A stretch of 22,358 nt of DNA, taken from positions 1 through 22,358 of the IMG/VR virus record IMGVR_UViG_3300006736_000100, one strand, 5' to 3'. The translations under genes were made by a program, and so were the position numbers. The stretch comes from a virus. The notes under the pieces are model-generated. The model saw only the letters and a list, made by a program, of their open reading frames with translations, was not told the DNA's origin and did not search any database. This document shows positions 1,646 to 22,358 of the stretch, in pieces. How positions within the stretch are numbered: the stretch's first letter is position 1; every line of letters begins with the position of its first letter.

Positions 1646-1647
1646 AA

Positions 1648-2942: not shown

Positions 2943-2963
2943 GATAGGAGCAATGGAGGAAAA

Positions 2964-3599: not shown

Positions 3600-3624
3600 A
3601 AAATGAGACGAGAGGTAATCTAAC

Positions 3625-4308: not shown

Positions 4309-4317
4309 GGTGATAAG

Positions 4318-5025: not shown

Positions 5026-5840
5026 AAACGCTGATTGCCGGCCCATGGGTTGGAGAATTCGGATGGGAGCTTTTTGCGTGGCATGGATATATTAGAGCCT
5101 TGTCTAGAAAGTATGATAAAACCATTATCATCTCTAGAGAAAATTCAAAAGCGCTATACGACGATTTTGCAACTGAGTTTATAGCTTACAGCCCGACGGG
5201 CGGCACCCCGGATGCGTTTTTTATGCACAATGTTGATGTAAAGAAATGTTTCTTCGAGGCACTAACAAAAAATAAAATTCCTTTAAATGAGGAGACCACA
5301 TTGCTTTTGGCCAGAAGAATAGGGGCGCCCCCTCATACACACTATGACCAGAGCATTGTTTTTGGAAAATATTTAATCAAACCAGAGTATATTTGTTTTG
5401 GCGAAGAAGGTCAAAAGCTGTATGATTTTGTTTTTCACATTAGAGACAGGAGCCTGAGAAAAGAAGACAATTGGAATTTAGAAAACTGGTTTAAACTTAA
5501 AGAGCTATTGGGAGATAAAAAAATAGCTTGTATAGGCACAAAGAATAATTCAGGCCACGTAGAGGGCACTGAAGACTTGAGAGACCTTGATTTAAAAAAG
5601 GTTTTTGATGTTTTAAGGAACGCTAGCTGTACATTTGGCTCTTCCTCGGGACCCATACACTTAGCCAGCTTGTGCGGATGCCCCCACATTGTTTGGGGCG
5701 ATCGCTCTCTGTCGCAATACAGATATGAAGAAAACTGGAACCCGCTGCGAACCAGGGCTTCGTTTTTATCTGAATTTGGCTGGCATCCCACTGCTGAATA
5801 TGTATATGAAAAATTTACAGAACAAAACCACAAAGGATAA
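5022..5840 (+). CDS. GT9-like glycosyltransferase (heptosyltransferase-like GT-B)
   Basis: A 272-aa protein. Near the C-terminus, residues 206-227 hold FGSSSGPIHLAS followed by LCGCPHIVWGD. This matches the donor-binding block of ADP-heptose:LPS heptosyltransferases and other GT9 enzymes (S/D-x-G-x-x-H-x-A...G.P...-G). The N-terminal GPWVGEFGWELF (7-18) resembles the glycine-rich acceptor-side loop of GT-B enzymes. Residues 165-172 (DKKIACIG) look like the start of the second Rossmann half. At 272 aa it is shorter than typical GT9 proteins (about 320-350 aa). ATGA overlap with the GT8-like gene and a 4-nt gap to the next gene place it in one translational unit. Heptose transfer is not implied; the donor could be any NDP-sugar. 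Confidence 0.65.
   Translation: MKTLIAGPWVGEFGWELFAWHGYIRALSRKYDKTIIISRENSKALYDDFATEFIAYSPTGGTPDAFFMHNVDVKKCFFEALTKNKIPLNEETTLLLARRIGAPPHTHYDQSIVFGKYLIKPEYICFGEEGQKLYDFVFHIRDRSLRKEDNWNLENWFKLKELLGDKKIACIGTKNNSGHVEGTEDLRDLDLKKVFDVLRNASCTFGSSSGPIHLASLCGCPHIVWGDRSLSQYRYEENWNPLRTRASFLSEFGWHPTAEYVYEKFTEQNHKG
5832..5837 (+). promoter_or_regulatory. Ribosome binding site that fixes the start of the UXS-like gene
   Basis: AAAGGA lies 7 nt upstream of the ATG at 5845. A same-frame ATG at 5689 would give a 52-residue longer protein, but that extension lies wholly inside the GT9-like gene, has no comparable Shine-Dalgarno, and encodes residues unlike any epimerase N-terminus. With the 5845 start the NAD-binding loop falls at residues 35-41, as usual for the family. 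Confidence 0.7.
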
Positions 5841-5844
5841 AAGA

Positions 5845-6885
5845 ATGGACACAAAGCATAAAATTTTAAAACGAGACAATTTGCACATTTATAAAAATCT
5901 AAAAGGAAAAACCGACTCTCTAAAACATAGCAGGGTTTTAGTTACAGGCTCTGATGGCTTTTTGGGCAAAACAATTGTTTCTTTTTTACAATTTTTGAAC
6001 AACACGAAATTCAATAAAGAAGAGCAGATTGAAATTATTGCAATCGATTACAAAGAGCATGATATATGTAACTCTTTAGAGTCCTTTGTACCGGAAGGAA
6101 AAATAGATTATATTATTAATTGTGCCGGCATTGCTTCTCCTAAGAAATATTTAAAATCTCCGATAAAAACACTGGACGTATCTTACTTGGGAACTAAAAA
6201 TATTTTCCAATTGGGGATGCTTAGGAATACAAAATCAATTTTAATGTTTTCTTCTAGTGAGGTATACGGCACTCCGCCTCCTGACAGGATCCCGACCCAA
6301 GAAGAATTTATTGGCTCGGTCACAACATTCGGAAATAGAAGTTGTTATGATATTGGCAAGAATGTTTTAGAGGCTCTTTCATATGTATATCACAACAACT
6401 ATGATGCGCCCGTCAATGTTTTGAGACCGTTTAATTTATACGGACCATTAATGTGTTTAGATGACGGAAGGATGATTCCTAACGTCTGTAAGTCTATGAT
6501 TGGCGGAAAAGATTTTTCAGTTTACGGCTCTGGAAACCAAACCAGAACCTATTGTTATGTAACAGATGCCATGGTATACCTTTTTCATATTCTTTTTTCA
6601 GATAAATTTGGACAAATTTACAACATTGGCTCGGAAGATGAAGAATTGTCGGCATTGGAAATAGCAGAAAAAACTTATTCGCTCATCGAGCCTAAGAATT
6701 CCGACTTTATCAAAAGACCGTATCCAAAAGAATATCCAGACAGTGAGCCCCAGCGGCGATGCCCAGATATTTCTAAAGCTAAAGCCGAGTTTGGATATTC
6801 GCCACAATATACTTTTGAACGCGGATTTGTTTCTTGCTATGAATACTTTTGCTCTTTAATGACATCATCGCATATGATATCATAG
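5845..6885 (+). CDS. NAD-dependent epimerase/dehydratase, UDP-glucuronate decarboxylase (UXS)-like
   Basis: A 346-aa extended SDR enzyme. The NAD-binding loop VLVTGSDGFLG is at 31-41 (G-x-x-G-x-x-G). FSSSEVYGTPPP at 135-146 carries the S-S-E catalytic cluster. CYDIGKNVLEAL at 167-178 gives the Tyr168-x-x-x-Lys172 pair. NVLRPFNLYGP at 191-201, DDGRMIPN, VYGSGNQTR and CYVTDA follow. The R-S-C-Y-D-x-G-K context and Q-T-R-T-Y-C-Y-V-T-D are characteristic of UDP-glucuronate decarboxylases, which form UDP-xylose. Relatives such as dTDP-glucose 4,6-dehydratases share parts of this pattern, so the precise reaction is uncertain. An N-terminal extension of about 28 residues (basic) precedes the Rossmann core. 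The start at 5845 is chosen because AAAGGA lies 7 nt upstream. It sits 4 nt after the GT9-like gene and 18 nt before fcl, forming a nucleotide-sugar supply block with fcl and gmd. Confidence 0.8.
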   Translation: MDTKHKILKRDNLHIYKNLKGKTDSLKHSRVLVTGSDGFLGKTIVSFLQFLNNTKFNKEEQIEIIAIDYKEHDICNSLESFVPEGKIDYIINCAGIASPKKYLKSPIKTLDVSYLGTKNIFQLGMLRNTKSILMFSSSEVYGTPPPDRIPTQEEFIGSVTTFGNRSCYDIGKNVLEALSYVYHNNYDAPVNVLRPFNLYGPLMCLDDGRMIPNVCKSMIGGKDFSVYGSGNQTRTYCYVTDAMVYLFHILFSDKFGQIYNIGSEDEELSALEIAEKTYSLIEPKNSDFIKRPYPKEYPDSEPQRRCPDISKAKAEFGYSPQYTFERGFVSCYEYFCSLMTSSHMIS

Positions 6886-6903
6886 AACATAATTGAGGAA
6901 CGT

Positions 6904-7842
6904 ATGTATAGAACGTGGTCTACGGAGAATACGATTAATAAAAATATATTGATTACCGGCGGAAATGGCTTGGTAGGAAGTACTATTACTGGACAATTAC
7001 GACCGACCAGCAAAGAACTGGACCTTAGAAATGCCGGACAGACGTATCGTTATTTTGAAAAGAAAGCCCCTACACACGTAATACATTGTGCCGCTAAGGT
7101 TGGTGGCCTCCTAGCCAATATAGAGGCCAATGGAGAATTTTTTTATGACAACGTTCAAATAAACTTGAATGTTCTAGAAGCTTGCCGTCGTTACGGCGTT
7201 AAGAAGTTGGTCTCGTTTCTCTCTACGTGTATATATCCAGATAACGTTGAATATCCCCTGACCGAAGAAAAGATTCATTTAGGCCCCCCGCACAGTTCTA
7301 ATTATGGATACGCATATGCTAAACGGATGTTGGAAGTTCAAAGCAGGGCATACAATGAACAGCATGGAACCAAATTTGTTACCGTAATACCCACAAATAT
7401 TTACGGCCCTAGGGATAATTTTAATATTGAGAAGGGTCATGTTATTGGTGGCTTGATTAATAAATGCTTAACGGCCAAGAAAAATAATACTGAATTTTTG
7501 GTTTGGGGATCGGGAAAACCGTTGAGAGAATTTATTTACTCTGAAGACATTGGAAGGCTAACCGATTGGGCACTAGAAAACTATGAAGAGGCCGATCCTA
7601 TTATATTTTCTAATAGTCAAGAAGTTTCTATTAAGAAATTGGCTTATCTCATTGCTGAAACTTTAGAATTTGATGGGCCAATAATTTTTGATACTAACAA
7701 ACCAGACGGACAGTTTAGAAAGCCCACAGATAATTTCAAGTTAACGAGCCTCCTTCCTGATTTTGAGTTTACTCCAATCGAGATGGGTATTAAAAAAACT
7801 ATTGATTGGTTTATATCTCATCAGAGCGAGGCTAGAAAATGA
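6904..7842 (+). CDS. fcl: GDP-L-fucose synthase
   Basis: A 312-aa bifunctional 3,5-epimerase/4-reductase that converts GDP-4-keto-6-deoxy-D-mannose to GDP-L-fucose with NADPH. The cofactor loop ILITGGNGLVG is at 15-25. The catalytic residues known from E. coli GMER (Ser107, Cys109, Tyr136, Lys140, His179) are all present, and by my count at the same residue numbers: LSTCIYP at 106-112, GYAYAK at 135-140, and KGHVI with His179. The family motifs KVGGLLAN (65-72), PTNIYGPRDNF (163-173) and GSGKPLREFIY are intact. The length matches the usual 310-320 aa. It overlaps the next gene by 4 nt (ATGA), and the partner enzyme gmd lies one gene downstream, so the phage carries both dedicated steps from GDP-mannose to GDP-fucose. 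A GAGG five bases upstream supports the start. Confidence 0.95.
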   Translation: MYRTWSTENTINKNILITGGNGLVGSTITGQLRPTSKELDLRNAGQTYRYFEKKAPTHVIHCAAKVGGLLANIEANGEFFYDNVQINLNVLEACRRYGVKKLVSFLSTCIYPDNVEYPLTEEKIHLGPPHSSNYGYAYAKRMLEVQSRAYNEQHGTKFVTVIPTNIYGPRDNFNIEKGHVIGGLINKCLTAKKNNTEFLVWGSGKPLREFIYSEDIGRLTDWALENYEEADPIIFSNSQEVSIKKLAYLIAETLEFDGPIIFDTNKPDGQFRKPTDNFKLTSLLPDFEFTPIEMGIKKTIDWFISHQSEARK

Positions 7843-8369
7843 AACTACACCTAGGATGTGGTGATAAAAGACTGGAAGGTTTTATTAATATAGATTGTAG
7901 GGAAACTAGCGCCACCGATATGATTGCCAATGTGGCCATATTGGAAGACTTTGATCTTAACTCAATTGAATTAATTTATGCTTGTCACGTTCTAGAACAT
8001 TTTGACCGGCATGAGTATAAAAAGGTTCTTAAGCGCTGGCATGAAATTTTAAAGCCCGCGGGCATTCTTAGGCTAGCTATTCCTGATTTTGGCTCTATAG
8101 TTAAATGGTATCAAAAAACAGGCGACTTGGAGCCCCTGCGCGGCCTTCTCTACGGTGCACAGAATTATGCAGAAAATTATCATCATTGTTGCTGGGACTT
8201 GAAATGTCTAAAGAATGATCTGGAAACTGTTGGCTTTGCCTCCATTGTGCCGTGGGAGTGGAGAAATGTAGAGCACAGCTCGATAGATGATTATAGCCAG
8301 TCTTATCTCCCCCACATGGATAAAAACAATGGAACACTGATGAGTCTCAATCTGGAGGCGACTAAATGA
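7839..8369 (+). CDS. Small SAM-dependent methyltransferase (COG4627-like)
   Basis: A 176-aa protein beginning MKLHLGCGDKRLEGFINID. Its SAM loop HLGCG lies at 4-8 and the acidic ribose contact is Asp19. YACHVLEHFDRHEYKKVL and HEILKPAGILRLAIPDF are the conserved motif IV-VI region of small predicted methyltransferases often found in LPS and O-antigen loci. The Rossmann core starts right at residue 2 with no N-terminal cap, and the whole protein is near the minimum size for the fold. It is inserted between fcl and gmd, with ATGA overlaps on both sides, so the three are made as a coupled unit. This suggests, but does not prove, that it methylates a deoxyhexose-containing product. Confidence 0.85.
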   Translation: MKLHLGCGDKRLEGFINIDCRETSATDMIANVAILEDFDLNSIELIYACHVLEHFDRHEYKKVLKRWHEILKPAGILRLAIPDFGSIVKWYQKTGDLEPLRGLLYGAQNYAENYHHCCWDLKCLKNDLETVGFASIVPWEWRNVEHSSIDDYSQSYLPHMDKNNGTLMSLNLEATK

Positions 8370-9340
8370 AAAATAAAACAGCACTAATAACCGGTATTGG
8401 CGGTCAAGATGGAAGTTATTTATCGGAATATTTGTTTTCGCTGGGATATCGCGTATACGGTATTATTCGGCGCCACTCGGTTGCGGAAAATCAAAATTAT
8501 CGATTACACAATCTTGATTTAGATATTGAGTGCCTTTATGGTGATTTGTTGGACTATCCCTCCCTGGTGAGAGTTATTAGTAAAGTACAGCCAGATGAGA
8601 TTTATAATCTAGGCGCCATGAGCCATGTTCGAATTAGTTTTGATATGCCATCATATACAATACAAACAAATGCTCTCGGTGTTTTAAATATGTTAGAGGT
8701 CTATAGAGTTCTGTGCCCATCTGCTAAATTTTATCAAGCTAGTTCTTCTGAGATGTTCGGAAACTCTGTTGACACTGACGGCATTCAGAGGATAACGACG
8801 CCTATGAATCCTGTAAGTCCATATGGATGCTCTAAGGTAATGGGGTATAATCTAGTACGTCATTATCGACACGCTTATGGATTGCATGCTTGTAATGGTG
8901 TTTTATTTAATCACGAATCACCGCGGCGAGGCTCCAACTTTGTTACAAACAAGGTTGTTAAAACGGCTGTGGAAATTAAAAAAGGACTGCGTAACAAGCT
9001 AGAATTAGGAAATTTAGATTCACGTCGCGACTGGGGGCACGCCAAGGATTATGTAAAGGCCATGCATATGCTTTTAAACTATGATATTCCTGGCGATTGG
9101 GTGGTAGCTACCGGGATTACGCATTCGGTTCGCGATCTTTGTAAATATGTATTTAGTAGCCTAGACATGAACTATAAAGATTATGTTGTTCAAAATCCTA
9201 TATATATGCGCGCAGAAGAACTTAAATATTTAAAAGGAGATAGTTCAAAAACTAGAGATGTGTTGAACTGGATACCAGAATATACATTTGAAACCATGTT
9301 AGATGAAATGATCGAATATTGGATGCAATTGATAGATTAA
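8366..9340 (+). CDS. gmd: GDP-mannose 4,6-dehydratase
   Basis: A 324-aa extended SDR enzyme that converts GDP-D-mannose to GDP-4-keto-6-deoxy-D-mannose, the first committed step to GDP-L-fucose and also to GDP-rhamnose or perosamine. ALITGIGGQDGSYL (6-19) is the NADP loop with the Gmd-type G-Q-D-G-S-Y-L. The next basic block, IIRRHSVAENQ, binds the 2'-phosphate. ASSSEMFGN (125-133) holds the catalytic Ser/Glu129, and SPYGCSK (151-157) the Tyr153/Lys157 pair. FNHESPRRGSNFVTNK is diagnostic of Gmd substrate binding. The length is slightly below the common 340-370 aa but nothing essential seems absent. The ATG overlaps the preceding stop as ATGA. It provides the substrate for fcl two genes upstream. 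It is the last recognisable sugar gene of the island. Confidence 0.95.
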   Translation: MKNKTALITGIGGQDGSYLSEYLFSLGYRVYGIIRRHSVAENQNYRLHNLDLDIECLYGDLLDYPSLVRVISKVQPDEIYNLGAMSHVRISFDMPSYTIQTNALGVLNMLEVYRVLCPSAKFYQASSSEMFGNSVDTDGIQRITTPMNPVSPYGCSKVMGYNLVRHYRHAYGLHACNGVLFNHESPRRGSNFVTNKVVKTAVEIKKGLRNKLELGNLDSRRDWGHAKDYVKAMHMLLNYDIPGDWVVATGITHSVRDLCKYVFSSLDMNYKDYVVQNPIYMRAEELKYLKGDSSKTRDVLNWIPEYTFETMLDEMIEYWMQLID

Positions 9341-10852: not shown

Positions 10853-11127
10853 AAGAATACATCGATGAGGCCACGCGTAACATTAAGGAAGATCGTGCAT
10901 TAGCCAAGTCACTTCTTCTGGATGCGATGACAGATATGAAAGCTAGCGACGTCGCAAGGCGCGAACTAGGCTCGATCGCGGCTAAGTATGTTGAAAACCT
11001 ACAGCGCTCTAATGAGCAAATGGTCAAACTGTCTGCTCTGTTGCAAAAACAGCAGGGAACAATTACCGGCCTCTCAGAAGAAGACAAAGAAGATCTTTAT
11101 GAAATGCTCGGCAACGAGGACAAATAA
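10831..11127 (+). CDS. Small helical hypothetical protein
   Basis: A 98-aa protein that is probably all-helical: EEYIDEATRNIKEDRALAKS, then LLLDAMTDMKAS, then KYVENLQRSNEQMVKLSALL, with few prolines and a heptad-like spacing of hydrophobics, so a short coiled coil is plausible. It starts inside the end of the sigma gene (22-nt overlap) and its TAA shares one base with the next ATG (TAATG). No metal, nucleotide or DNA-binding motif is obvious. The tight coupling to the late sigma factor could mean it is a partner or simply part of the same transcript. I do not recognise the family. Confidence 0.7.
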   Translation: MGKRRNLEEYIDEATRNIKEDRALAKSLLLDAMTDMKASDVARRELGSIAAKYVENLQRSNEQMVKLSALLQKQQGTITGLSEEDKEDLYEMLGNEDK

Positions 11128-11699
11128 TGGGTTCTGAAAGATTTATAGAGTTTGTAAGCAGATACCCAAAAAAATCATATGGTGCTCCTTCTGACGCTCC
11201 CAAAGTAGACACACGGCAGAATACTGGTTTGGATATGGTTGCACATGCCACACGAGCTTATTATACAACAGGCCATCTTATGTCTGACTTCGATGATGCG
11301 ATTGTTTGCGCTATTCTGCGTCATGAAGAGCCCGAAGGATCGTCGCTTAATCCCGAATTAAATATCATAGCCAGCAGCAACGAAGTGTATGATCTTAAGT
11401 GCTTTGTTTTGACGCGTCCGCTGACTAGCCACATAGGGTACAAAAACATAGCTTCATTGGACCCTGTATATGTCAGTTTGCTTCCAGCATTTAAAGCCAC
11501 ATTGGAATGCTCTGAAGTTCGACCGAAGCTGGGAGACGTAGTTGTAGTAAAATATGATAGTCTTACGTATACCAGCGGCGTTTATATAAAGCCAACAGGG
11601 ATAAACGTTGCTGATATGTTTTCGGACAGTCTGGCCGAAAAGAGTTTGCCTGACCAGTTTCGCGATAGCCCGCGATATGAACCTCCCGGGGATGTATAG
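11127..11699 (+). CDS. Hypothetical phage protein, possibly tail/baseplate-associated
   Basis: A 190-aa protein. The N-terminus (MGSERFIEFVSRYPKKSYGA) is polar. A beta-rich domain follows from about residue 45, with strands such as AIVCAILRH, VYDLKCFVLTRP and LDPVYVSLLPAFKATLEC, then GDVVVVKYDSLTYTSGVYIKP at about 136-157. The G-D-V-V-V-V-x-Y pattern resembles the strand-turn of an OB-fold or a capping barrel as seen in baseplate hub proteins, but I cannot establish homology. It ends in a proline/acidic tail (RYEPPGDV). Three nt separate it from the next gene, a putative baseplate protein, so a structural role is the best guess. Four cysteines occur, without a CxxC arrangement. Confidence 0.6.
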   Translation: MGSERFIEFVSRYPKKSYGAPSDAPKVDTRQNTGLDMVAHATRAYYTTGHLMSDFDDAIVCAILRHEEPEGSSLNPELNIIASSNEVYDLKCFVLTRPLTSHIGYKNIASLDPVYVSLLPAFKATLECSEVRPKLGDVVVVKYDSLTYTSGVYIKPTGINVADMFSDSLAEKSLPDQFRDSPRYEPPGDV

Positions 11700-11702
11700 T
11701 AC

Positions 11703-12767
11703 GTGGTTGCCAAGAAGAAGCCGTTTGATAAAACGAAAGCGTACGCTCTAGCGCCACGCCCGGATAGGAATGTTGACCTAGGGCTCGCCGATCCTGCAAA
11801 GTTAAGAGCACTTCTTGAAGCGCCGATTGATTTTCAGTTTAATCAATCCGGTGTTGGCGGCCGCAGTTCTATAGAGCCAGTACCAAATTTTGCTCGGCTA
11901 GAAAGTGAAAAAGTAATTTGCAATAATAGAAATGCGTGGATAGTTTTGGGCACTGATCGAACCGGGCCGGCTTTGTCGGGATATGGCGGGAAGGGAGAAA
12001 CTCAAGTTGCTGCCATCGATATTGTTTGCGGTCGCATGGGCCCCTATGTTCGCGAACGAGATGACGAAGGTAAACCAATAGAAGTCAACCCAGACTTTAC
12101 ACTTGATACTGCTAGAATATATATTAGCCAAAAAGCCGATATTGATGAATATTTTGATTTGCCATATGGGAAGGTAGGAAACCCCATCGCATCGTCGGCA
12201 ATAGCTTTAAAGGCAGATGAGATACGAATGATATCTCGCGGCGGCATTAAAATCATTACGGGACAAGACGCAAGAGACGCCAGAGGTGAGCGCGTCAACA
12301 CCAAAGACGGGATAAAAGGGATAGATTTGATCGCGGGCCCGGATCCGCAAGGCGCCTCGTACCAGTCGCCTCAACAGCCGCTTGCTAAAGGAAATAATCT
12401 TGTTGCGTGCCTTGGCACCGTGGACACAAATCTACCCCTGATCATGCAGAGTCCTCCCGGTTTAGCGGCTCAAATAAATGCCTTAAGGGGGATACTACAT
12501 TCATTTATATTATATCAAAAAGAATTCAACCAGGCGGTTCAGATGCATAACCATATATCTGGCTGGCAGATTACTCCCGCGAAGCCAACATTTAGTCTAG
12601 AATCTATTCCACTTGTTGTGGCAGGAGCAAAAATGAATACTCAATTAACAGCGCAAACAGAAATGTCTATTGCGAGCCACGCATTCAATATGGGCCAATG
12701 GGAGGCCAATTACTTAAAGCCGGGATTTGAGAAATATATTTGTAGTGATTTCAATACCACAAATTAA
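11703..12767 (+). CDS. Putative baseplate/spike-associated structural protein
   Basis: A 354-aa protein with a GTG start, 3 nt after the previous stop. Residues about 90-170 form a beta-rich core (AAIDIVCGRMG, ARIYISQKADIDEYF, SAIALKADEIRMISRGGIKIITG). It continues into KGIDLIAGPDP and QQPLAKGNNLVACL, then a helical segment LRGILHSFILYQKEFNQAVQMHNHISG with a His-rich end. I-x-L-I-A-G and A-x-x-I-x-x-I-S-x-x-G-I-x-I strand repeats are common in beta-helical spike and hub proteins (gp5/VgrG-like). The Q-P-L-x-K-G-x-x-L-V followed by an F-N-x-A-x-x-x-H-x-H segment resembles structural proteins of aquatic T4-like phages. This is motif-level recall only. Its position directly before the giant gene and gp25/gp6 supports a baseplate role. 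Confidence 0.6.
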   Translation: MVAKKKPFDKTKAYALAPRPDRNVDLGLADPAKLRALLEAPIDFQFNQSGVGGRSSIEPVPNFARLESEKVICNNRNAWIVLGTDRTGPALSGYGGKGETQVAAIDIVCGRMGPYVRERDDEGKPIEVNPDFTLDTARIYISQKADIDEYFDLPYGKVGNPIASSAIALKADEIRMISRGGIKIITGQDARDARGERVNTKDGIKGIDLIAGPDPQGASYQSPQQPLAKGNNLVACLGTVDTNLPLIMQSPPGLAAQINALRGILHSFILYQKEFNQAVQMHNHISGWQITPAKPTFSLESIPLVVAGAKMNTQLTAQTEMSIASHAFNMGQWEANYLKPGFEKYICSDFNTTN

Positions 12768-12778
12768 AAAAAGATGTT

Positions 12779-15700
12779 ATGAGCAAACAAATAAGAGAAA
12801 ATCTTTTAGCTGAGCGCCGCTGGTATCAACGTCAGGTAAACAAACCTTGGGAAGAAGACGGATTTATTAAAATATCGGTCAAGGGCGCCCTATCTATGAC
12901 CCCAGGTACGGTCGATTATAATAATGACGAGCCGACGGCTGTGGCTAAAATATATGATTTTTATGGCAAAGTAACCCCCGCGACAGTCAGTAATATCATA
13001 GGCGAAGATAGTCATTTTTATCAGCGGCCCATGATGCGGCCGTTATTGTTATATTCTATACCCAAAGCAGATGTTGAAAGCGCTATTAAAAAAAGTGCCG
13101 GAAGAGATCCGTCAATATTGACAGCCGATCTAGCAGCTTTGGCTTATTCGCGAAGCTATTCGCTAACCAAATTTGATCGACAAATAACAGAAATATCTGA
13201 TATGTTCACAGTATTTCAAAAGCAAAGTAAATTTTTTGCTGGTAGTACAAAGCCGGCAATTAATTTTATACAAGACTATAATAAGCTCGTGCTGGCTCAT
13301 GAGAAAATAAAATCATTTATTCGGTTTAATGGATTACAATATAGAACCGATGAGGCCGACAAAGTACGGATTGAGTTTGCTGCTAATTATCGCATTATTA
13401 ATATAATATTAGTTCAAGGAGCAATAGACAAATATTTGTTTAAGGGCTCTGCATATTATCTACAAGATACGCCCGGGCTTCAAAACTTGCGTGTTAACCA
13501 ATTATTATCACAGCTTAATGAAATACATCGTTTAACGAAAGAACCAGAGTTGCCCACCTGGACAGAATTTATTAATAATTTTCTACCAGGTGTTGAAATA
13601 AACTTTTTTGGGCGCCCCCATACTCCGCCTCCTGGTGCACCTCCTCATGAAGGTGGTTATTCGGCCACCATGCTTGGCGTCGGCAAGCCTTATATGGACG
13701 AGGCAGCAAAGTTAGAAGACAGAAAAAAGCTTAAAGATCCATGGGTTCAAGCACAGCTTCTCCGTGAAGCGATGAAGAAGGATCCCAAAAGAAAAAAGAT
13801 GGAAAAAAAGATGCAGGAAACAGCCGAAAAAATGAAGGCTGCTTCAGAAAAGGTTGAATTAGTTCGCGAATTTATAAGTAAATGGGGCATTGACAACCTT
13901 ATCTATGCTGCTCTAGAATGTTTAGCTATAAGGTCAGGGATGGCTGTTAATTCTATTCCACCCATTCCGGGTCTTAATCCATATGATATAATGCCAAAAC
14001 CAATTATTATAAAAATTCCCAAGATGAGCTTTCAAATGCCTACAGTTGATTATCTTCAAGCCCTGGCTGATCAACTTAAAGAAGGGGTGATCGGCGCCGC
14101 TTATGATGCATTAATGGCTGTATCCCAAACCTTGGCAGAAATAATTCTAGCTTTATGTCAAGAGAAGGACGAAGAGGAAATTACCGAATCTACTCCTATT
14201 AATGATTTAATTAAATTATATCCACAGCCCGATGAAATTGAAAAGCCAGGCCATGAGCAGTCTTGTTTAGAAGCGTGTTATGAACAGACGGGGATTGATG
14301 ATTTAGAAATAGGGAATTTATTTTTATCTGAAGTGGCCCGACGCCTAACACCTCGCGAAACTTGTGATTTGATTAACTCTGCCATGTCACAGATGGTAAT
14401 AGAAATTGTTAAAAACACATTGGTTTCAGACACTCAATTCCAGCCAATTCGTGCAGTATTAACCAATGATGATGAAATAATAGAATTTTTTGCGAACATT
14501 GGTCGTTGCGTTTCTTCTGAGTATTGTGAATCAGTTTATGCTGAGTCACCGATAGATATAAGCGATTTAGACCCTTGTACAATTGAAGATTTATTGGTAG
14601 ATCAATTGCCTCCAAACATTTTTGACGCATTAATAGACGCCCTTAATGCAGATGATTTGATGGCCGGCGCAATGCCCGATTTGGGCTGCGGCGCAGGAAT
14701 AATGCCGGCAATTGCAGATATCCCTGTTCTAAACTATTCCATTACCAATACATTCATTAACATGTTTGAGCCCCCCTCGTCGGCATTTATAAATGATATT
14801 TCGCTCCTGAAAGACATTTTGCTTACCCCTACTGCCAGATGCCTTGATGGAATGGATCCCGGCAGTGCAGCACTGTTGCAAGAATTAGAAGATGCTGGTC
14901 TTATGCCGAATCCGGGCCCGAAACGAGACGACGACGGTAAGAAGGAAAAGCGTATTACGGAGAAGCAATTAAGGCCTTTGATAAATTTGTTTCCGGAAGA
15001 CCTGAGAAGAAACGGACAGATCGCGAATATAATAAATCTAATGGAGGGAGCAGTGGCCGATCCCGTCGCTGCAGCATGCACTAATATTGGCTTCACATAT
15101 GAAGTCGCGCCACAATACAAAGAGAATTTATCCGAGTTGGATAAATTTATGGGCACAATGTGGAGCCGGCCGGCCGCTTCAGCTGACTCAGTCGCGGATT
15201 ATGGCAATATGTATTTCTGGCTTATATTACCGGAACCCCGAGCCGGCATCGGTACTTCACCGACGACCATAGGTTATGACGCTATATATTTTTCTCCTGG
15301 TCACGGCGCCAGGCCCGAGGCCACTCATCTGAATCAATTCACTTACAACTTTGACTCTATCTACACGCGCATAGAGGTCTTTACTGATCAGCAACCCGCG
15401 GCCACTACATTTAATTGCGCCGACGGCGGCGCCGATTTTGATGAAGATTACCCTTGTGCCGTTAGGGGACGCTTACAACTTGAGTTCGGCAAAATGGTTT
15501 TTGGGAATGTTCTCGCCGCCGTGGGAGATCCCGCGGCTTACCAAATGCCGGGCGGCGATAACACTTATGGTTCCAGGAAGTCTGCCGCTCGACGGTATAT
15601 GGCGAAGAATCTGTATTTTCCTGCTTATAAGTCTTTATTTAATTCAACAGCGGCCAACATAGCAAACTCAAAACTTTTTGAAGTACATGAACTCCAAAAA

Positions 15701-18700
15701 TTGTCATTAATACCGGCGCCCTGTTCCGACGGAAGCAGAGTTGGAAATGACCTTTTTGATATTTATACCATAATTCAAGAAGCCCTAGACGAATTTAAAG
15801 AAAATTCATGCTCAGATAAGACTTGCGCCATAGGGCCGGTTGAGGATGCACTGATATACGCTGCTTTAAATGCATATATGCAAATTCTTTTATTAGAGCA
15901 GCTTCTCAAAAATATCTTTTTATTAGATGCGTATGGCCTGGGAAGCTATTTGGCCCCTGCCAGTGATGATCTCGAAGCGCAGCGTAAGAAAGACTTTATT
16001 GTCGATAACATAATGCAAGAAATTTATGTTAGCATTGGCGCCAGAACTATAGCCAGTGAGGATCCGCTAACCGGGTCAACTCTCGGCGATATTCGAGCCG
16101 CAAGTCTGCAGACGCGTAAAAATATGTTAAGAGCGTTGTACAGCGCATCAATAATATTTGTTGATAAATTAAGAATTCGCACCGTAGATCCGGCCACTGG
16201 TCTGGTCCCTGAATATATATCCTCGCTCGCTGATCCGGTTTTGCTCGCAGCCGGCCGATACCAGCCCATCGTTGGTACACTATTACCACATCCAGATAAT
16301 CCGGCCGACCAGATAGCAATTCCCGACAACGTCTTAGATTGGGTAGACTCATCAACGGAATGGGCCAAGCAGGCATATGGAGAATATGCATTCGAATATA
16401 TGGTTAAAAGAAGATTATCGCGACTAATTCCAAAAATTAACGAGCTTTTTAACAAGCCGACCACTGAGGGCCCAGACACCAGCTTCCTTTTATATGGCCT
16501 TCCGGAAACCGATCTACTTCATTTGCCAAAGGTGACTGTCGGAGAAGCACCGCCTACTCCAGCGGGCTCTACACCCGCCGAGGCGCCTATAGAAAAGTGG
16601 CTGCGTTCGTCGGAATGGGATACTACCCTCTTCGGCGGTGCGACGCCCACCGTATCAAGAATCCCCACAATGGGACTTCAGCGCCCAAACACTGCCGAAG
16701 AGGGAGAACCAATACCAGAGCCAACTCCAATAAATTATAATTATGGTTTAAATCTTAAAGACTATGGTATTATGAGGGATACAATCTCTCCTGATGAGGC
16801 TCTGTACGCGCGCGAGAATGGTGTTCTTGCCCGCGAAAATTATATTGAGTTTAAAGTGAATCACGATAACTTGCAAGCGCTCCTTCATGCTCCGTCCTGG
16901 ACTCCTGAGATAGCCGCCGAGTACTTCGGTTATGAGCCGCCAGCGCCGGTCGACATCGATTTCGACCCGGACACAGAAGGGGTCCAGGAATACGAGCCGT
17001 GTGGCCCCGATGGCCCAAATCCGTGGAGAGAGGCTCGCGAAGGGTTGATGCAAAGAGCCGACGTCAATCTTGAGGGTGTGCCCCCGATAGAAAGAAACGC
17101 CATTCAACAGCGCGCCAAACGTCTCAAGGGCTGGTTGTTCGATGGAGGTCTTCTTCCTACCCCGGAACTTGCAGACGTCTCCCTTGCCGGCGAGGCGGGG
17201 AACGAAGGCGGCGAGTATGTATATCCACGTGGTTGGAGCAAGATAAAAGTTGGTATTGATCAATTTAATACTTTTGTAAACTCAATTAGACGTGAGGACA
17301 CGCAGCCAGATCCAAGCTTGGACAATATAAGAGTCACTTATATTATAGAGACAATATGTCCTCTCAATTTTAGTGCCCATGACTGGACGACCAGCATGGA
17401 CAAATTAGGAATGATGCCCTTTGATACGGGCATGGGTTTAAATAACGAAAACGATACCAACTCCGGCGGCCGCGTGGGCCCGCTATATTATCATGCTATA
17501 CAAGGTCCTTTGAATAAAAATAATTATGGCGCAATTAGGTTTTGGTTAAATGAAGTAGTTAATACTGCCGCTACCGTAGCTTCCCGGGATCCGGAAAACT
17601 CCGGGCAATATCCCATGCCGGCCATGAGGCCCGAGCTCGGCGACATCCCCGCAAACGCCGCCGATCGAGAAGATATCTGGTCGGGCCCGTACGGTGCGAA
17701 GTCAGTGTCACCCACTATTGCAATAGTGGGTTTTGAGAGGATGAATGAATTTCATGAGGCCTCATCATATAGAAAGGCCCACACTCGCAAGTTGTCGCTA
17801 CCAATAATAGATAGATGGAGCGCTCCATTTACAGATGTTCCCCACGGCGGCGGGTGGGATACCGCGCGCGCCAGTCAGGGTGGTGTTGAGGCGCGCCTTG
17901 AATTTCACGGTGTCGTCACGAGGACGGCTGCGTCGACGACACCGTACGAGGCTCTTTTCGGTCAGAATCCATATCACGGCCTTTACAATCCAGCGGATCC
18001 GGAAGCGGGCTTCTATGCCAAATGGCGGTTTTCCAGCATGGCCGGCGCCGCAGGCATTGGCTGGTACCGGGAGAAGAAAGTATATTCCGGCGGCGGCGTT
18101 CGGCAGGTCTACTTAAGAAAACAACTCCACGATCGGCACCTCGAGGTTGATGATCGACCCGGCACTTCCCCTTACCCCGATCTACATGGCAGGATATCAA
18201 TTACTCATCATGGCAATGCGCGCGGCCAGCCAGTACAGATGGATGCGGGCAATAGTTGGGACCACGATAACCCGGGCCGCTACGACCAGGGCGGCGCCTA
18301 CGACTACTATTACGGCCTCGATTTAGCAGCGGAATTTGCCGGCACCGACGAGGAAGCCGAGTACGACTCGGAACGTAGAAACAACCCCAAATACCGCCAG
18401 TACCGGAATGGACTTGTACAATTTCGTCTTCGTAAGAGTGATTTGTATGAAAGCGATTATAACCAGGCCATATGGACTGGATTTGATATCAATACCTTGC
18501 GAGGATATACAAAGAACTGGTGGGGAAATCAGAAGAATGTAAATATCAAGCCTGAAGGCACCGCGAACATCGGATTCTGGGAACATATTCGTGAACACCG
18601 ACGTGGCCCAGACTGGAAGAATGACAATGACGAGGTTGTGAAATGGCGCATGGGAGACCAGGCCTCTGTGAGGCACCTAAAGTGCACCGAACCAGACGGC

Positions 18701-20956
18701 GCCAACCTGGGGGGTATTGTGATCACCGGTGATGCTAGCGCTGACGGTTTTGGTGATTGGGCAGCGCCTTTGGACCATAACAATCTACCGGCCGATGACC
18801 CCGGTGGATCATTTTTCACATATCCCAATAATCCTGAAAATGATGCCCTCTGGGCCGATATGTATGTCGGCCCGGAGCCGTTAACGGATCCCCTCGGCGG
18901 CACAGGCGACGCTATAGTGGAGCGCAGGCAGAACTTTCGTAGCAAATTTTTGCCAGACCTCATCCTCAAGGAGAAGCTGATCAGCGCCTACGACGGCCAC
19001 CTACAGCCTGCTGCAGCCGAAAATGGTCCCGGTACGGGTACACCGATTGCTGCCTCGATTCCGGCGCCGCTACCAATGGAACCATGGCCTCCCACAGGTC
19101 CCCCACCGAACCACCAGGCCTTCGGGGGCTTTGCAGGCTTGGCTACTGGCCACTTTAGGGTGGTGGCGATAACGCTAGGTGGTGCCGAAGATCCCAACAA
19201 CCCCGGAAGCGCCGTCAAACAAGTTGATGGGGATGGCAATATTATTGATATGGAGGAGTGGAATATTCCCGGGATCGAAAATATAGTAAGAGAGAATACT
19301 TGGGATCAATTCAACGGCCTATTTAATGCTCCGGAAACCAATCCCCCACCTGGTGGCTTCGGCGGCCTTGCAGGATCTAATCTCTGCACAGGGTCGGCTG
19401 TCTGTGCCGAAGAATGCCCCCCCGACTCTTTCATTCCGGTCATGCTCGAACGGTCCCCAGAAGACATGATGCGAGCGGCCATGGACATGATGAACTCGTT
19501 ATTGGGTCCGGATTTTTCATCAGATCGTGCTAATTGGCCCATATCTACGGGATTTATAACTGGCGATAGACGCTTTGATAATGAGATAAGCAAAGTTATT
19601 AGACAAATTGAGGTTGGTACGCGAATAGTATATCTATCGCCAATACTTGATACCTCCTACGCTAACCAATTAGGCGCGCTCGTGAGCTCACCCCGCGCGG
19701 TCAGCCTCAAAGGCGCCCAGACCGAGCTAGACTACTACTACGCGAAGGGCCTCCAAAGACGACAATATTATAAAGAAAAATCTGATTGGATTATAGATGC
19801 CGGTAGTGAAGACACTTATGGTAATTCCGGAAAAATTTTGCATGCTAATACCGGCATTACCGGCAGCGTCCATCTGGCCACTACCTTGGGCGGACTTGAA
19901 TATTCTTCTTATACGCTAGATTCACTAAATCTTGGCGGAGGAAGAGAAAGCAAATATATTGATACACGTGTATTTGATGTTATACGACCGTGGCTAAAAG
20001 AAGGCGAGCCTGGACCCGGGAACATGATTGCGAAAGAGATAGCTAGCGATCCTCAATATCAATTATTATTTAAACAAGTTTACGATACAGATGCACTACT
20101 TCAATTCATGTTTCTCTCCGGCCTGCGTTCAGCTGACATGCTATCTAACAAATTTACAATCATGTTTAACGACACAAAACAACATCTTCGAATAATATTG
20201 CGCGCCGCTCTTGCGGGCGATGATTATACCCACAGAGATCCAGAGAGCACCTCTTCTTCGAATATTGCTGCTGCCGCCGCATTGGATTTGATGGGAGCCG
20301 GCTTATTACCATTTGTAGATATGGGCTCGTCTTTTATACAGAAGATGCTTATAGAGACAGGCAAGCGTTTAGTTAAGGGCTTGGCAGAAATGTTAGACCC
20401 GCATGTGATAATCGGAAAAATAATTAGAGATGTTAGCGGGCAAGTAATCGACCAAGCTGAGCAGATTTATGGTCTTGCTGGCCAGATCGCCGGCACCGCT
20501 GCCGGACTGGCCGAGGACCAACGGTACCAGGATACCTCCGGTGAAGTATTCGAGAAGACGATCAGAGAGCATATGAGAGATGGGATTAAAGAAGAGTGGG
20601 GCGATATTTGGAAGCCGATGCGGCCAAAGATTTCGGACGCTTCGGGTCTGGATTTAATAGGCACTTTCCCATATTTTCTTTGCATCCCTCCAACGCCATT
20701 GGGAATAGCTTATATTCTTTTAAATCTTCATTTTGATGAAAACGAAGCTGCCAATTCTGAAATGCGAAGGTTGTTGAGCGATCCTCTAGCGTGTGCCGGC
20801 GGCACACCTCGGCCACAACTGCGCACGCCCAAGATAGGAGGAGATATTGAAGAAGGTGCCAAGTACACTTGTAAGGAAGGAGAAGACCCGGATGGGATTC
20901 AGGTTGTTGAAGAGGATGTCTCATCTGTCCCAGGCGACGACCCGTGCCCAACGTGA
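12779..20956 (+). CDS. Giant 2725-aa putative virion (tail/baseplate-associated) protein
   Basis: One uninterrupted frame of 2725 codons, the largest gene of the window. I recognise no catalytic domain. Visible regions: 1-270, mixed alpha/beta; 270-310, Pro/Gly-rich linker (HTPPPGAPPHEGG); about 332-372, a strongly charged coiled coil (KKDPKRKKMEKKMQETAEK); 373-700, helical with long hydrophobic helices and paired cysteines (SCLEACYEQ, PRETCDLI, GRCVSSEYCES). About 790-2260 is dominated by Asp/Gly/Pro/Trp/Tyr-rich irregular sequence, interspersed with ordered blocks. About 2250-2690 is again helical, including an Ala/Gly-rich hydrophobic stretch (2496-2580) and FPYFLCIPPTPLGIAYILL. The last 60 residues are acidic with a few cysteines. 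The start is supported by position but has only a weak AAGAT upstream. The location before gp25 and gp6 suggests a baseplate or tail component; a host-adhesion role is inferred. Base composition changes sharply within the gene. Confidence 0.7.
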   Translation: MSKQIRENLLAERRWYQRQVNKPWEEDGFIKISVKGALSMTPGTVDYNNDEPTAVAKIYDFYGKVTPATVSNIIGEDSHFYQRPMMRPLLLYSIPKADVESAIKKSAGRDPSILTADLAALAYSRSYSLTKFDRQITEISDMFTVFQKQSKFFAGSTKPAINFIQDYNKLVLAHEKIKSFIRFNGLQYRTDEADKVRIEFAANYRIINIILVQGAIDKYLFKGSAYYLQDTPGLQNLRVNQLLSQLNEIHRLTKEPELPTWTEFINNFLPGVEINFFGRPHTPPPGAPPHEGGYSATMLGVGKPYMDEAAKLEDRKKLKDPWVQAQLLREAMKKDPKRKKMEKKMQETAEKMKAASEKVELVREFISKWGIDNLIYAALECLAIRSGMAVNSIPPIPGLNPYDIMPKPIIIKIPKMSFQMPTVDYLQALADQLKEGVIGAAYDALMAVSQTLAEIILALCQEKDEEEITESTPINDLIKLYPQPDEIEKPGHEQSCLEACYEQTGIDDLEIGNLFLSEVARRLTPRETCDLINSAMSQMVIEIVKNTLVSDTQFQPIRAVLTNDDEIIEFFANIGRCVSSEYCESVYAESPIDISDLDPCTIEDLLVDQLPPNIFDALIDALNADDLMAGAMPDLGCGAGIMPAIADIPVLNYSITNTFINMFEPPSSAFINDISLLKDILLTPTARCLDGMDPGSAALLQELEDAGLMPNPGPKRDDDGKKEKRITEKQLRPLINLFPEDLRRNGQIANIINLMEGAVADPVAAACTNIGFTYEVAPQYKENLSELDKFMGTMWSRPAASADSVADYGNMYFWLILPEPRAGIGTSPTTIGYDAIYFSPGHGARPEATHLNQFTYNFDSIYTRIEVFTDQQPAATTFNCADGGADFDEDYPCAVRGRLQLEFGKMVFGNVLAAVGDPAAYQMPGGDNTYGSRKSAARRYMAKNLYFPAYKSLFNSTAANIANSKLFEVHELQKLSLIPAPCSDGSRVGNDLFDIYTIIQEALDEFKENSCSDKTCAIGPVEDALIYAALNAYMQILLLEQLLKNIFLLDAYGLGSYLAPASDDLEAQRKKDFIVDNIMQEIYVSIGARTIASEDPLTGSTLGDIRAASLQTRKNMLRALYSASIIFVDKLRIRTVDPATGLVPEYISSLADPVLLAAGRYQPIVGTLLPHPDNPADQIAIPDNVLDWVDSSTEWAKQAYGEYAFEYMVKRRLSRLIPKINELFNKPTTEGPDTSFLLYGLPETDLLHLPKVTVGEAPPTPAGSTPAEAPIEKWLRSSEWDTTLFGGATPTVSRIPTMGLQRPNTAEEGEPIPEPTPINYNYGLNLKDYGIMRDTISPDEALYARENGVLARENYIEFKVNHDNLQALLHAPSWTPEIAAEYFGYEPPAPVDIDFDPDTEGVQEYEPCGPDGPNPWREAREGLMQRADVNLEGVPPIERNAIQQRAKRLKGWLFDGGLLPTPELADVSLAGEAGNEGGEYVYPRGWSKIKVGIDQFNTFVNSIRREDTQPDPSLDNIRVTYIIETICPLNFSAHDWTTSMDKLGMMPFDTGMGLNNENDTNSGGRVGPLYYHAIQGPLNKNNYGAIRFWLNEVVNTAATVASRDPENSGQYPMPAMRPELGDIPANAADREDIWSGPYGAKSVSPTIAIVGFERMNEFHEASSYRKAHTRKLSLPIIDRWSAPFTDVPHGGGWDTARASQGGVEARLEFHGVVTRTAASTTPYEALFGQNPYHGLYNPADPEAGFYAKWRFSSMAGAAGIGWYREKKVYSGGGVRQVYLRKQLHDRHLEVDDRPGTSPYPDLHGRISITHHGNARGQPVQMDAGNSWDHDNPGRYDQGGAYDYYYGLDLAAEFAGTDEEAEYDSERRNNPKYRQYRNGLVQFRLRKSDLYESDYNQAIWTGFDINTLRGYTKNWWGNQKNVNIKPEGTANIGFWEHIREHRRGPDWKNDNDEVVKWRMGDQASVRHLKCTEPDGANLGGIVITGDASADGFGDWAAPLDHNNLPADDPGGSFFTYPNNPENDALWADMYVGPEPLTDPLGGTGDAIVERRQNFRSKFLPDLILKEKLISAYDGHLQPAAAENGPGTGTPIAASIPAPLPMEPWPPTGPPPNHQAFGGFAGLATGHFRVVAITLGGAEDPNNPGSAVKQVDGDGNIIDMEEWNIPGIENIVRENTWDQFNGLFNAPETNPPPGGFGGLAGSNLCTGSAVCAEECPPDSFIPVMLERSPEDMMRAAMDMMNSLLGPDFSSDRANWPISTGFITGDRRFDNEISKVIRQIEVGTRIVYLSPILDTSYANQLGALVSSPRAVSLKGAQTELDYYYAKGLQRRQYYKEKSDWIIDAGSEDTYGNSGKILHANTGITGSVHLATTLGGLEYSSYTLDSLNLGGGRESKYIDTRVFDVIRPWLKEGEPGPGNMIAKEIASDPQYQLLFKQVYDTDALLQFMFLSGLRSADMLSNKFTIMFNDTKQHLRIILRAALAGDDYTHRDPESTSSSNIAAAAALDLMGAGLLPFVDMGSSFIQKMLIETGKRLVKGLAEMLDPHVIIGKIIRDVSGQVIDQAEQIYGLAGQIAGTAAGLAEDQRYQDTSGEVFEKTIREHMRDGIKEEWGDIWKPMRPKISDASGLDLIGTFPYFLCIPPTPLGIAYILLNLHFDENEAANSEMRRLLSDPLACAGGTPRPQLRTPKIGGDIEEGAKYTCKEGEDPDGIQVVEEDVSSVPGDDPCPT
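17711..17730. repeat. Perfect 20-bp palindrome followed by TTTT, inside the giant gene
   Basis: CCCACTATTGCAATAGTGGG equals its own reverse complement and is followed at once by TTTT. In RNA it could fold as an 8-bp stem with a 4-nt loop, like a weak intrinsic terminator or pause hairpin. It lies in a coding stretch (PTIAIVG), so chance under codon constraints is possible. Confidence 0.9.
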
Positions 20957-21036: not shown

Positions 21037-21432
21037 ATGAAAGGTTTATCGCCAAAGTTTCCTCTTCGATATGACAATCAGTTCGGGTTTTATAGTTTAA
21101 ACGTAACTTATAAAGATATGGTTCGTCAAAATATAAAGAATTTATTGTTAACAAATCAAGGCGAACGCGTTATGGATATTAATTTCGGTGTCGGAATACG
21201 ATCTTATTTTTTCGAGCCCATGACTTCTGCTGTTTATGGCCGCATCGCTGAGAGCGTACACGCTCAAGTCGCAAAATATATGCCTTTTGTTACAGTAAAC
21301 GGAGTCGATTTTCACAGCGGAGAAGAGTTAAGTGGCACCGGCAATGTACTGGGAGTTTCAATTAGATATACAATCGACCCTATACAAGAGACCGACAGAA
21401 TTACCATACGCGAAAGCGCTACGGGAATATAA
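21037..21432 (+). CDS. gp25-like baseplate wedge protein
   Basis: A 131-aa protein matching the gp25/GPW family (T4 gp25 is 132 aa), a core wedge subunit of contractile-tail baseplates that initiates the sheath. The diagnostic segment is NLLLTNQGERVMDINFGVG followed by IRSYFFEP (about residues 35-61), with the G-E-R-x-M...F-G-x-G-I-R...F-E-P pattern conserved from phages to type VI secretion TssE. The rest follows the family: AVYGRIAESVHAQVAKYMPFV, then a beta hairpin ending in IRYTID. The ATG has AAGG 9 nt upstream. It follows the 80-nt intergenic region and is 14 nt before gp6, the partner with which it forms the wedge in T4-type baseplates. Confidence 0.93.
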   Translation: MKGLSPKFPLRYDNQFGFYSLNVTYKDMVRQNIKNLLLTNQGERVMDINFGVGIRSYFFEPMTSAVYGRIAESVHAQVAKYMPFVTVNGVDFHSGEELSGTGNVLGVSIRYTIDPIQETDRITIRESATGI

Positions 21433-21446
21433 ATTGAGGATATAAA

Positions 21447-22358
21447 ATGGCTTCTAACTCTAAAAAAAAATTAAAGGCAGTAAATTATACTAGTCGTGAT
21501 TTTAGCGCGATTAAAGCCGATTTAATAAGCTACGCCAAGCGATATTATCCAGAAAGCTATAAAGATTTCAATGAAGCAGGCTTTGGTGCTTTGGTATTGG
21601 ATTCAGTTGCTTACGTAGGCGACATATTATCGTTTTATTTAGATTATCAAGTGAACGAGTCCTTTCTAGATAGCGCTTTAGAATATGATAACGTTCTTCG
21701 TTTGGCGCGCCAGCTGGGATGGAAATTTACTGATAGTTCCACTTCTGTCGGCACGGCGCAGTTTTATGTCACAGTTCCATCGGATGCATCTGGCGCGCCC
21801 GATACGACGTATTATCCTACTCTTCGAGTCGGCAGCCAGTTCGTTTCTGTAGACGGCAAAATGTTTACTTTAACTGAAGATGTTTATTTTGGTGCTACCG
21901 GCAATGAGGTTATAATTACGACTGTTAATGCAACAACAAATTCGCCAATTGAGTTTGCCGTAAAGGCTTCGGGAAAAGTTATATCAGGGCGCACTGAGCG
22001 CGAAACTAAAACCATTGGTGCTTATCAAAATTTTTTAAAGATACCTTTGGCAAGCCCCTCTATAACGGAAGTAATTTCTGTAATAGATAGTGAAGGCCAT
22101 AGATATTATGAAGTAGACCATTTAGCCCAAGAAATAATTTATAAAGCCGTAAGGAATAATAATGCAGATAGAAACAGCGTTCCATCTATTTTAAAAGCGG
22201 TCCCGGTAGCAAGAAGATTTACTCTAGAAAGGACCCGCGGGGGCGCTTTCTTACAGTTTGGCTATGGGAGTGATACGGAACTAACAAACGAATCGGTTAT
22301 AGATCCTAATAAGATTACATTACAATTGCATGGTCGCGATTATACAACCGAAAAAGAA
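21447..22358 (+). CDS. gp6-like baseplate wedge protein, N-terminal part (3' end outside window)
   Basis: The frame is open for 304 codons from ATG 21447 to the end of the window, with no stop; T4 gp6 is about 660 aa, so roughly half is missing. The N-terminus has NYTSRDFSAIKADLISYAKRYY and then FNEAGFGALVLDSVAYVGDILSFYLDYQVNE, followed by NVLRLARQLGW. This is the classic start of gp6/BaseplateJ proteins, in which the first domain packs on gp25. GAFLQFGYGSD near the end matches the conserved F-G-x-G block. GAGGA with 6-nt spacing supports the start. It follows gp25 by 14 nt, the conserved wedge gene pair of T4-like phages. It confirms that the right-hand third of the window is the baseplate module of a contractile-tailed phage. 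Confidence 0.92.
   Translation, partial: MASNSKKKLKAVNYTSRDFSAIKADLISYAKRYYPESYKDFNEAGFGALVLDSVAYVGDILSFYLDYQVNESFLDSALEYDNVLRLARQLGWKFTDSSTSVGTAQFYVTVPSDASGAPDTTYYPTLRVGSQFVSVDGKMFTLTEDVYFGATGNEVIITTVNATTNSPIEFAVKASGKVISGRTERETKTIGAYQNFLKIPLASPSITEVISVIDSEGHRYYEVDHLAQEIIYKAVRNNNADRNSVPSILKAVPVARRFTLERTRGGAFLQFGYGSDTELTNESVIDPNKITLQLHGRDYTTEKE

What the first reader, a model, noticed from the sequence alone, without database searches (positions are those of the whole stretch)
12779..20956. Giant 2725-aa open frame of unknown function next to the baseplate wedge
T4 has no protein of this size at the gp25/gp6 position. The protein combines a coiled coil, hydrophobic helical ends and a central Asp/Gly/Pro/aromatic-rich half, with no enzyme motif. 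It may be a new class of baseplate-periphery, tail-fibre-like or DNA-ejection protein.
Basis: partly seen in the sequence, partly recalled or inferred. Interest (0 to 1): 0.65.

Follow-up and report, generated by a model that had tools for sequence, protein, structure and literature searches.

The report
Giant cysteine-bearing phage baseplate-locus protein family
The 2,725-residue protein is real and belongs to a previously undescribed family of giant proteins (about 1,600 to 3,100 residues) encoded next to the tail spike and baseplate genes in a large group of uncultured T4-like phages; it is probably a baseplate part with a swappable middle section, but its presence in virus particles has not been shown.

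Summary
The open frame (12779-20956, 2725 aa) is real, intact and not an assembly fusion. A gp6-guided scan of IMG/VR gave a clade of T4-like phage contigs with the same order: late sigma factor, p98, lysozyme-carrier p190, spike p354, GIANT, gp25, gp6. About 110 related ORFs share an N-core (residues 1-1130, with a confident alpha/beta head at 1-280) and/or a C-core (2400-2680). The centre (about 1136-2260) is lineage-specific; in one close pair its silent sites are saturated while the flanks are not, which indicates recombinational swapping. Seven cysteines are invariant: six in the N-core (35/35) and one in the C-terminal tail (36/36); 29 of 68 distinct tails end exactly in Cys. No Pfam, PHROG, PDB-sequence or PDB-fold match and no tblastn hit in 50,697 phage records. 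The tape-measure role appears taken: a 171-kb relative has a separate 805-aa tape-measure candidate. Best reading: a single-chain baseplate protein beside spike and wedge, with a replaceable, probably host-facing middle. Virion presence is inferred from locus only. DNA ejection and assembly fusion are disfavoured. Fission into two genes occurs only in a nested clade, not in the closest relatives.

The parts
12779..20956 (+). Giant protein, 2725 aa (about 300 kDa)
   Evidence: single-chain homologue L087 2526 aa; 110 related ORFs
12779..13618 (+). N-terminal alpha/beta domain, residues 1-280
   Evidence: AF2 pLDDT mostly 70-93; no PDB fold match; profile-profile matches to remote groups g2 and g3, probability 93-95%
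13700..15088 (+). Helical body, residues 308-770; holds invariant Cys381, 460, 529, 583, 600
   Evidence: AF2 helices; Cys 35/35
15458..16183 (+). Block B, helical, residues 894-1135; invariant Cys1011
16184..19558 (+). Central lineage-specific module, residues 1136-2260, G/P/D/N/aromatic-rich, GC3 0.51 against 0.37 and 0.42 in the flanks (circular-shift fraction 0.029)
   Evidence: shared in full only with L086 (37%) and L087 (27%); fast-evolving; GC3; AF2 pLDDT about 30, no usable model
19976..20818 (+). C-core, residues 2400-2680, helical; motifs 'KGL.E..DPHV' and 'PP.PLG..YLL'; invariant tail Cys2672
20792..20794 (+). Codon of invariant tail cysteine C2672
   Evidence: 36/36 in A13; all 68 unique family tails have Cys in the last 60 aa, 29 as the last residue
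10145..10852 (+). gp55-like late sigma factor candidate (locus context)
   Evidence: weak PHROG late sigma hit, E 0.027; homologues with 28-32% identity in T4-like phages
11127..11699 (+). p190: OB-like spike/hub domain; relatives carry exchangeable peptidoglycan hydrolases after it, this one does not
   Evidence: alignment A12; Pfam lysozyme, M15, M23, Amidase_3, GH19 in relatives; the OB-fold label is inference
11703..12767 (+). p354: spike-like protein with HxH motif (H282, H284)
   Evidence: alignment A11; HxH iron sites in phage spikes and fibres (PMC6116203); no PDB profile match
21037..21432 (+). gp25 baseplate wedge subunit
   Evidence: PF04965 E 1.9e-14
21447..22358 (+). gp6 baseplate wedge subunit, cut by the contig end
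   Evidence: phrog_10646 E 6.9e-15; tblastn E 4e-38 to phage Mel-JY01

Best explanation
The protein is a structural component of the contractile-tail baseplate of a T4-like phage clade known here only from metagenomes. Its N-core and C-core form a conserved scaffold that sits where the spike/hub meets the gp25-gp6 wedge ring. The roughly 1100-residue middle is a replaceable module that projects from this scaffold and most likely faces the host (receptor or envelope contact, or sensing that triggers contraction). Seven invariant cysteines, one in a flexible acidic C-terminal tail, probably staple the two cores or bind neighbours through disulfides or a metal. Shown: gene integrity, synteny, family, conserved blocks, invariant cysteines, modular divergence and recombination, and a separate tape-measure candidate in a relative. 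Inferred: presence in virions, position in the baseplate, host-facing role, disulfides.
For: Order sigma-p98-p190-p354-giant-gp25-gp6 holds across the clade. p190 is the tail-lysozyme carrier: exchangeable lysozyme, M15, M23, amidase and chitinase modules in relatives. p354 has a spike-type HxH motif. The relative G001 has sheath (E 6e-71), tube, hub (phrog_150) and an 805-aa tape-measure candidate (E 5e-4) elsewhere. The N-core and C-core are conserved in dozens of contigs, the centre is not. Pair L105/L106: fourfold-site identity mostly 60-90% across the gene but 17-45% over residues 1361-1680; dS 0.32 in the N-core against 1.93 in the centre. Six N-core Cys 35/35 and the tail Cys 36/36, while gp6 has almost no Cys. 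Precedents: disulfide-locked baseplate of phage Milano (PMC10811340); a proposed gp10-gp7 disulfide in T4 (PMC3004832).
Against: No virion proteomics. No fold or sequence match to any baseplate protein. Gene position can mislead: assembly factors are also encoded in tail operons. The central module has no usable model (pLDDT about 30) and no recognised binding domain. The centre's divergence could reflect relaxed constraint rather than host contact. Cytoplasmic assembly makes disulfides less natural than metal binding.
Confidence: 0.5

Rival explanations
1. It is itself a receptor-binding adhesin or fibre anchored at the baseplate: the whole chain is host-facing, with the cores serving only as anchor.
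For: Fast, modular, recombining centre; unusual size; glycan and nucleotide-sugar genes occur in the same contig.
Against: The conserved cores make up at least half of the protein; no fibre, spike or carbohydrate-binding Pfam domain in about 65 scanned sequences apart from one LysM; fibre genes normally lie distal to the wedge genes.
Confidence: 0.15
2. A non-virion assembly factor (chaperone or scaffold) for the spike or wedge, absent from mature particles.
For: No family match; co-operonic with assembly genes; T4-like operons do encode catalytic assembly proteins (established knowledge).
Against: Very large for a catalytic factor; strict retention with a hypervariable, swapped centre fits surface exposure better than chaperone work (inference).
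Confidence: 0.15
3. A DNA-ejection or pilot protein carried in the particle and released into the cell.
For: Hydrophobic helices in the C-core.
Against: Hydropathy only borderline for membrane spans; locus is spike/wedge, not head or internal proteins; no internal-virion PHROG match; a large G/P/aromatic-rich centre with invariant cysteines is not typical of proteins threaded through a tail tube (inference).
Confidence: 0.08
4. Tape measure protein.
For: Giant length varies between phages; Foldseek lists weak tape-measure models (E 0.14-0.3).
Against: Relative G001 has a separate 805-aa tape-measure candidate next to hub, tube and sheath genes; the length variation lies in the centre rather than in a uniform helical rod; the gene is not in the tube/sheath cluster.
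Confidence: 0.03
5. Assembly or annotation fusion of separate genes.
For: Ten or more relatives have an N gene and a C gene (e.g. L010 1532+597, L125 1780+500, L152 1566+513).
Against: Closest relatives (L087, L088, L090, L091, L102) are single-chain and come from different contigs; splits sit in one nested clade.
Confidence: 0.01

Closest known systems
T4 baseplate wedge protein gp7 (119 kDa, monomer, peripheral)
   Same: Large single-chain multi-domain protein at a T4-like baseplate; T4 gp7 has eight cysteines and a proposed disulfide to gp10 (PMC3004832)
   Different: No detectable sequence or fold similarity; different gene position; related phages also have a second giant (about 3.3-4.2 kaa) downstream of gp6 that sits nearer to the gp7 position
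Giant ORFs after gp6 in cyanophages (e.g. Prochlorococcus phage Syn1 Syn1_094, 3274 aa)
   Same: Giant protein of unknown function beside gp25/gp6
   Different: Downstream of gp6 rather than between spike and gp25; no BLAST or phmmer similarity
BFVD models A0A516MAR9, A0A1B1IUZ9, A0A1B1IUR6, A0A516M7H3
   Same: Same fold by Foldseek, probability 1.00, E 1e-6 to 9e-16: deposited but unnamed likely members of this family
   Different: 12-14% identity; no function assigned; origin not shown by the tool
Phage Milano disulfide-linked tail and baseplate (PMC10811340)
   Same: Precedent for cysteines that lock a contractile tail
   Different: Different system, not compared by sequence here; disulfides in the giant are only inferred

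Membership tests
T4-like contractile-tail phage, baseplate locus | gp25 and gp6 homologues adjacent | tested here: met
   PF04965 and PHROG baseplate wedge hits; gp6 tree
T4-like contractile-tail phage, baseplate locus | Sheath and tube genes in the genome | tested here: inconclusive
   Seen in relative G001; the window contig is only 22 kb and lacks these regions
T4 gp7-type wedge protein | Sequence or fold similarity to a solved baseplate protein | tested here: not met
T4 gp7-type wedge protein | Six copies bound in the wedge | not testable with these tools
   needs virion structure
Tape measure protein | Lies in the tube/sheath gene cluster and is the only such gene in the genome | tested here: not met
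   Separate 805-aa candidate beside hub, tube and sheath in relative G001
Tail fibre or receptor-binding protein | Fibre, adhesin or carbohydrate-binding domain | tested here: not met
   No Pfam hit in giants except one LysM in L028
Tail fibre or receptor-binding protein | Hypervariable, recombining module | tested here: met
DNA-ejection protein | Internal-virion family match or clear membrane-spanning helices | tested here: not met
This giant family (new) | N-core, C-core, seven invariant Cys, position between p354 and gp25 | tested here: met

The most novel reading that the evidence does not exclude
A single-chain giant baseplate scaffold held together, and to a neighbour, by cysteines: six in the N-core and one near the tip of a flexible C-terminal tail form a covalent (disulfide) or metal lock around the spike, while a swappable module of up to about 1,100 residues senses the host. 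A second protein of 322-346 aa from the same structural locus, encoded after a second giant, ends in a cysteine in all four genomes inspected and could be the partner.
Probability: 0.18. Interest if true: 0.78.

Novelty: new variant of a known kind. Interest (0 to 1): 0.58.

Why it matters
T4-like baseplates are the reference for how contractile injection machines trigger. This clade, well represented in IMG/VR but without a match in the 50,697 deposited phage records searched, inserts a protein of about 300 kDa exactly between spike and wedge genes, which no described baseplate model accounts for. The invariant cysteine set and the recombining centre make clear, testable predictions (covalent or metal lock; host-range module) and give a marker for assigning these phages and perhaps their hosts.

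Tried and rejected
Pfam and PHROG scans of the giant and about 65 related sequences: nothing except LysM in L028 and marginal endolysin, unknown-function or coiled-coil hits. tblastn of four giants or pieces, and of p354, against 50,697 phage records: no match. PDB profile searches with N-core, C-core and p354: only chance hits. Foldseek against PDB with both models: no significant hit. A first scan with the single giant sequence found nothing, so gp6 was used as bait. A scan for the central module found only the two contigs already known. Small proteins between spike and gp25 in outgroup phages (Mel-JY01, immuto, LR756508) are not detectably related to the giant blocks. A genome-contig scan with p354 gave one short MAG contig (Actinomycetes MAG JAUVQD010000088), too little to name a host. 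The central-module model (pLDDT about 30) was not interpreted. The tape-measure and assembly-fusion readings were considered and rejected.

Full report
OBSERVATION. The window is a complete IMG/VR record of 22,358 bases. The frame 12779-20956 encodes 2725 residues without a stop. It starts 11 nt after the preceding gene and is followed by gp25 (PF04965) and gp6 (PHROG baseplate wedge). No family library, PDB sequence or deposited phage record matches it.

RELATIVES. A scan with the giant alone found nothing. gp6, aligned with Mel-JY01, immuto and LR756508, was used instead. In the loci whose gp6 is about 45-60% identical to the window's, a giant gene of 926 to 3140 codons lies between a spike-like gene (p354) and gp25, in the order late sigma, p98, p190, p354, giant, gp25, gp6. 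Exceptions are L024 (two tandem paralogues of 307 and 462 aa) and the minimal 926-aa L036. This retrieval did not use the giant, so its regular presence is an independent observation. A second scan with the C-terminal block gave 163 matching stretches; the 80 best loci were kept and nearly all showed the same synteny. The closest complete relative, L087, lies on a 170,861-base contig and encodes a 2526-aa single chain, 46% identical over 2379 residues.

ANATOMY. An iterated profile (110 ORFs) shows two conserved regions: the N-core (1-1130) and the C-core (about 2400-2680). The centre (1136-2260) is shared along its length only with L086 (37%) and L087 (27%). Profile-profile comparison extends the N-terminal domain or helical body to remoter giants of the clade (g2 93%, g3 95%, g8 92%), so they probably form one superfamily. 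AlphaFold2 with 35 sequences models residues 1-280 as a confident alpha/beta domain followed by a mostly helical body; no PDB fold matches. Four unnamed viral proteins in BFVD match with probability 1.00, so the family has been sequenced before but, as far as these searches show, not described. The second model gives a helical C-core and an uninterpretable centre; it has no PDB match.

CYSTEINES. Six N-core cysteines (381, 460, 529, 583, 600, 1011) are present in 35/35 aligned members and the tail cysteine (2672) in 36/36, although most members are only 15-40% identical. Of 68 distinct C-terminal tails all have Cys within the last 60 residues and 29 end exactly in Cys, against a Cys frequency of 0.76%. 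gp6 has almost none. The 322-346-aa protein encoded after a second giant downstream of gp6 also ends in Cys, or has it one residue before the end, in four of four genomes. Across all ORFs of G001 and G002 a Cys near the C-terminus is not enriched (7 against 6.6 expected; 10 against 8.4), so this is specific. Disulfide or metal binding is inference; disulfide-locked contractile tails exist (phage Milano, PMC10811340).

EVOLUTION. On a gp6 tree the giant-bearing loci form one group (SH-aLRT 93). Splitting into an N gene and a C gene occurs in one nested set of 13 rows (L008-L010, L125, L149, L152 and others), which also holds the single-chain L118; L018 has a separate small N-terminal paralogue. 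In the pair L105/L106 fourfold-site identity is mostly 60-90% across the gene but 17-45% at residues 1361-1680, with dS 1.93 in the centre against 0.32 in the N-core and omega about 0.15 in both: a swapped segment under purifying selection. L126/L131 show a recombination boundary near residue 720. In the window GC3 rises to 0.51 in the centre (flanks 0.37 and 0.42); a circular-shift control gives 0.029, and most relatives tested do not reach that level, so this is weak support.

LOCUS LOGIC. p190 relatives carry lysozyme, M15, M23, Amidase_3 or GH19 modules after a shared N-terminal domain: this is the exchangeable tail-lysozyme carrier. The window's p190 (190 aa) lacks such a module. p354 has an HxH motif of the kind that binds iron in phage spikes and fibres (PMC6116203). 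G001 encodes sheath, tube, hub and a tape-measure candidate elsewhere, so those roles appear filled. The giant therefore lies between spike and wedge genes; in T4, gp25, gp6 and gp53 form the dome around the hub (PMC3004832).

MECHANISM. Most likely (0.5): a baseplate scaffold between hub and wedge with a replaceable middle that faces the host, possibly stapled by cysteines. Shown: gene, family, synteny, blocks, cysteines, swapping. Inferred: virion location, host contact, covalent lock. Rivals: adhesin or fibre (0.15), non-virion assembly factor (0.15), ejection protein (0.08), tape measure (0.03), assembly fusion (0.01).

LIMITS. Retrieval capped at 80 loci per scan is biased toward closer relatives. 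Host and environment are unknown. E-values from scans refer to candidate stretches. The OB and spike labels of p190 and p354 rest on alignment and motif, not structure. The gp6 tree is a quick tree, and the window's gp6 is partial.

Noticed in passing
window 322-9340: Dense cluster of glycan or nucleotide-sugar genes by sequence appearance (glycosyltransferase-, methyltransferase-, NAD-epimerase-, GDP-mannose-dehydratase-, aminotransferase- and sulfotransferase-like ORFs) directly upstream of the baseplate genes. Relatives G001 and G002 seem to have a similar cluster. May modify phage glycoproteins or host surface sugars.
   Followed up: no
window 11127-11699: The window's tail-lysozyme carrier p190 ends after its N-terminal domain, while many relatives carry a peptidoglycan hydrolase there (lysozyme, M15, M23, Amidase_3, GH19) or a GDSL-like module. 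The window phage may lack a tail hydrolase or encode it elsewhere.
   Followed up: partly
G001-G004 (L171, L172, L179, L187, L188): A second giant protein (about 3270-4250 aa) follows gp6 and a 513-548-aa protein in related phages; no similarity to giant 1 or to cyanophage Syn1_094.
   Followed up: partly
L171:11392-12429, L179 (G002 83502-84542), L187:5978-6958, L188:13101-14069: 322-346-aa protein after the second giant ends in Cys (or Cys-Glu) in all four genomes; in G001 and G003 it is the protein's only cysteine.
   Followed up: partly
L028:3203-9559: The giant of L028 holds a LysM domain at residues 189-236 (Pfam E 2.3e-7), the only clearly recognised domain in the family.
   Followed up: no
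L024:34-2339: In place of a giant, two tandem paralogous genes (307 and 462 aa) lie before gp25.
   Followed up: no
L018:1280-2149: A 290-aa gene before the giant repeats the giant's first 60 residues: partial duplication of its N-terminus.
   Followed up: no
L126 vs L131 giants, residue about 720: Silent-site identity jumps from about 30% to above 80%: an intragenic recombination boundary in the N-core.
   Followed up: partly
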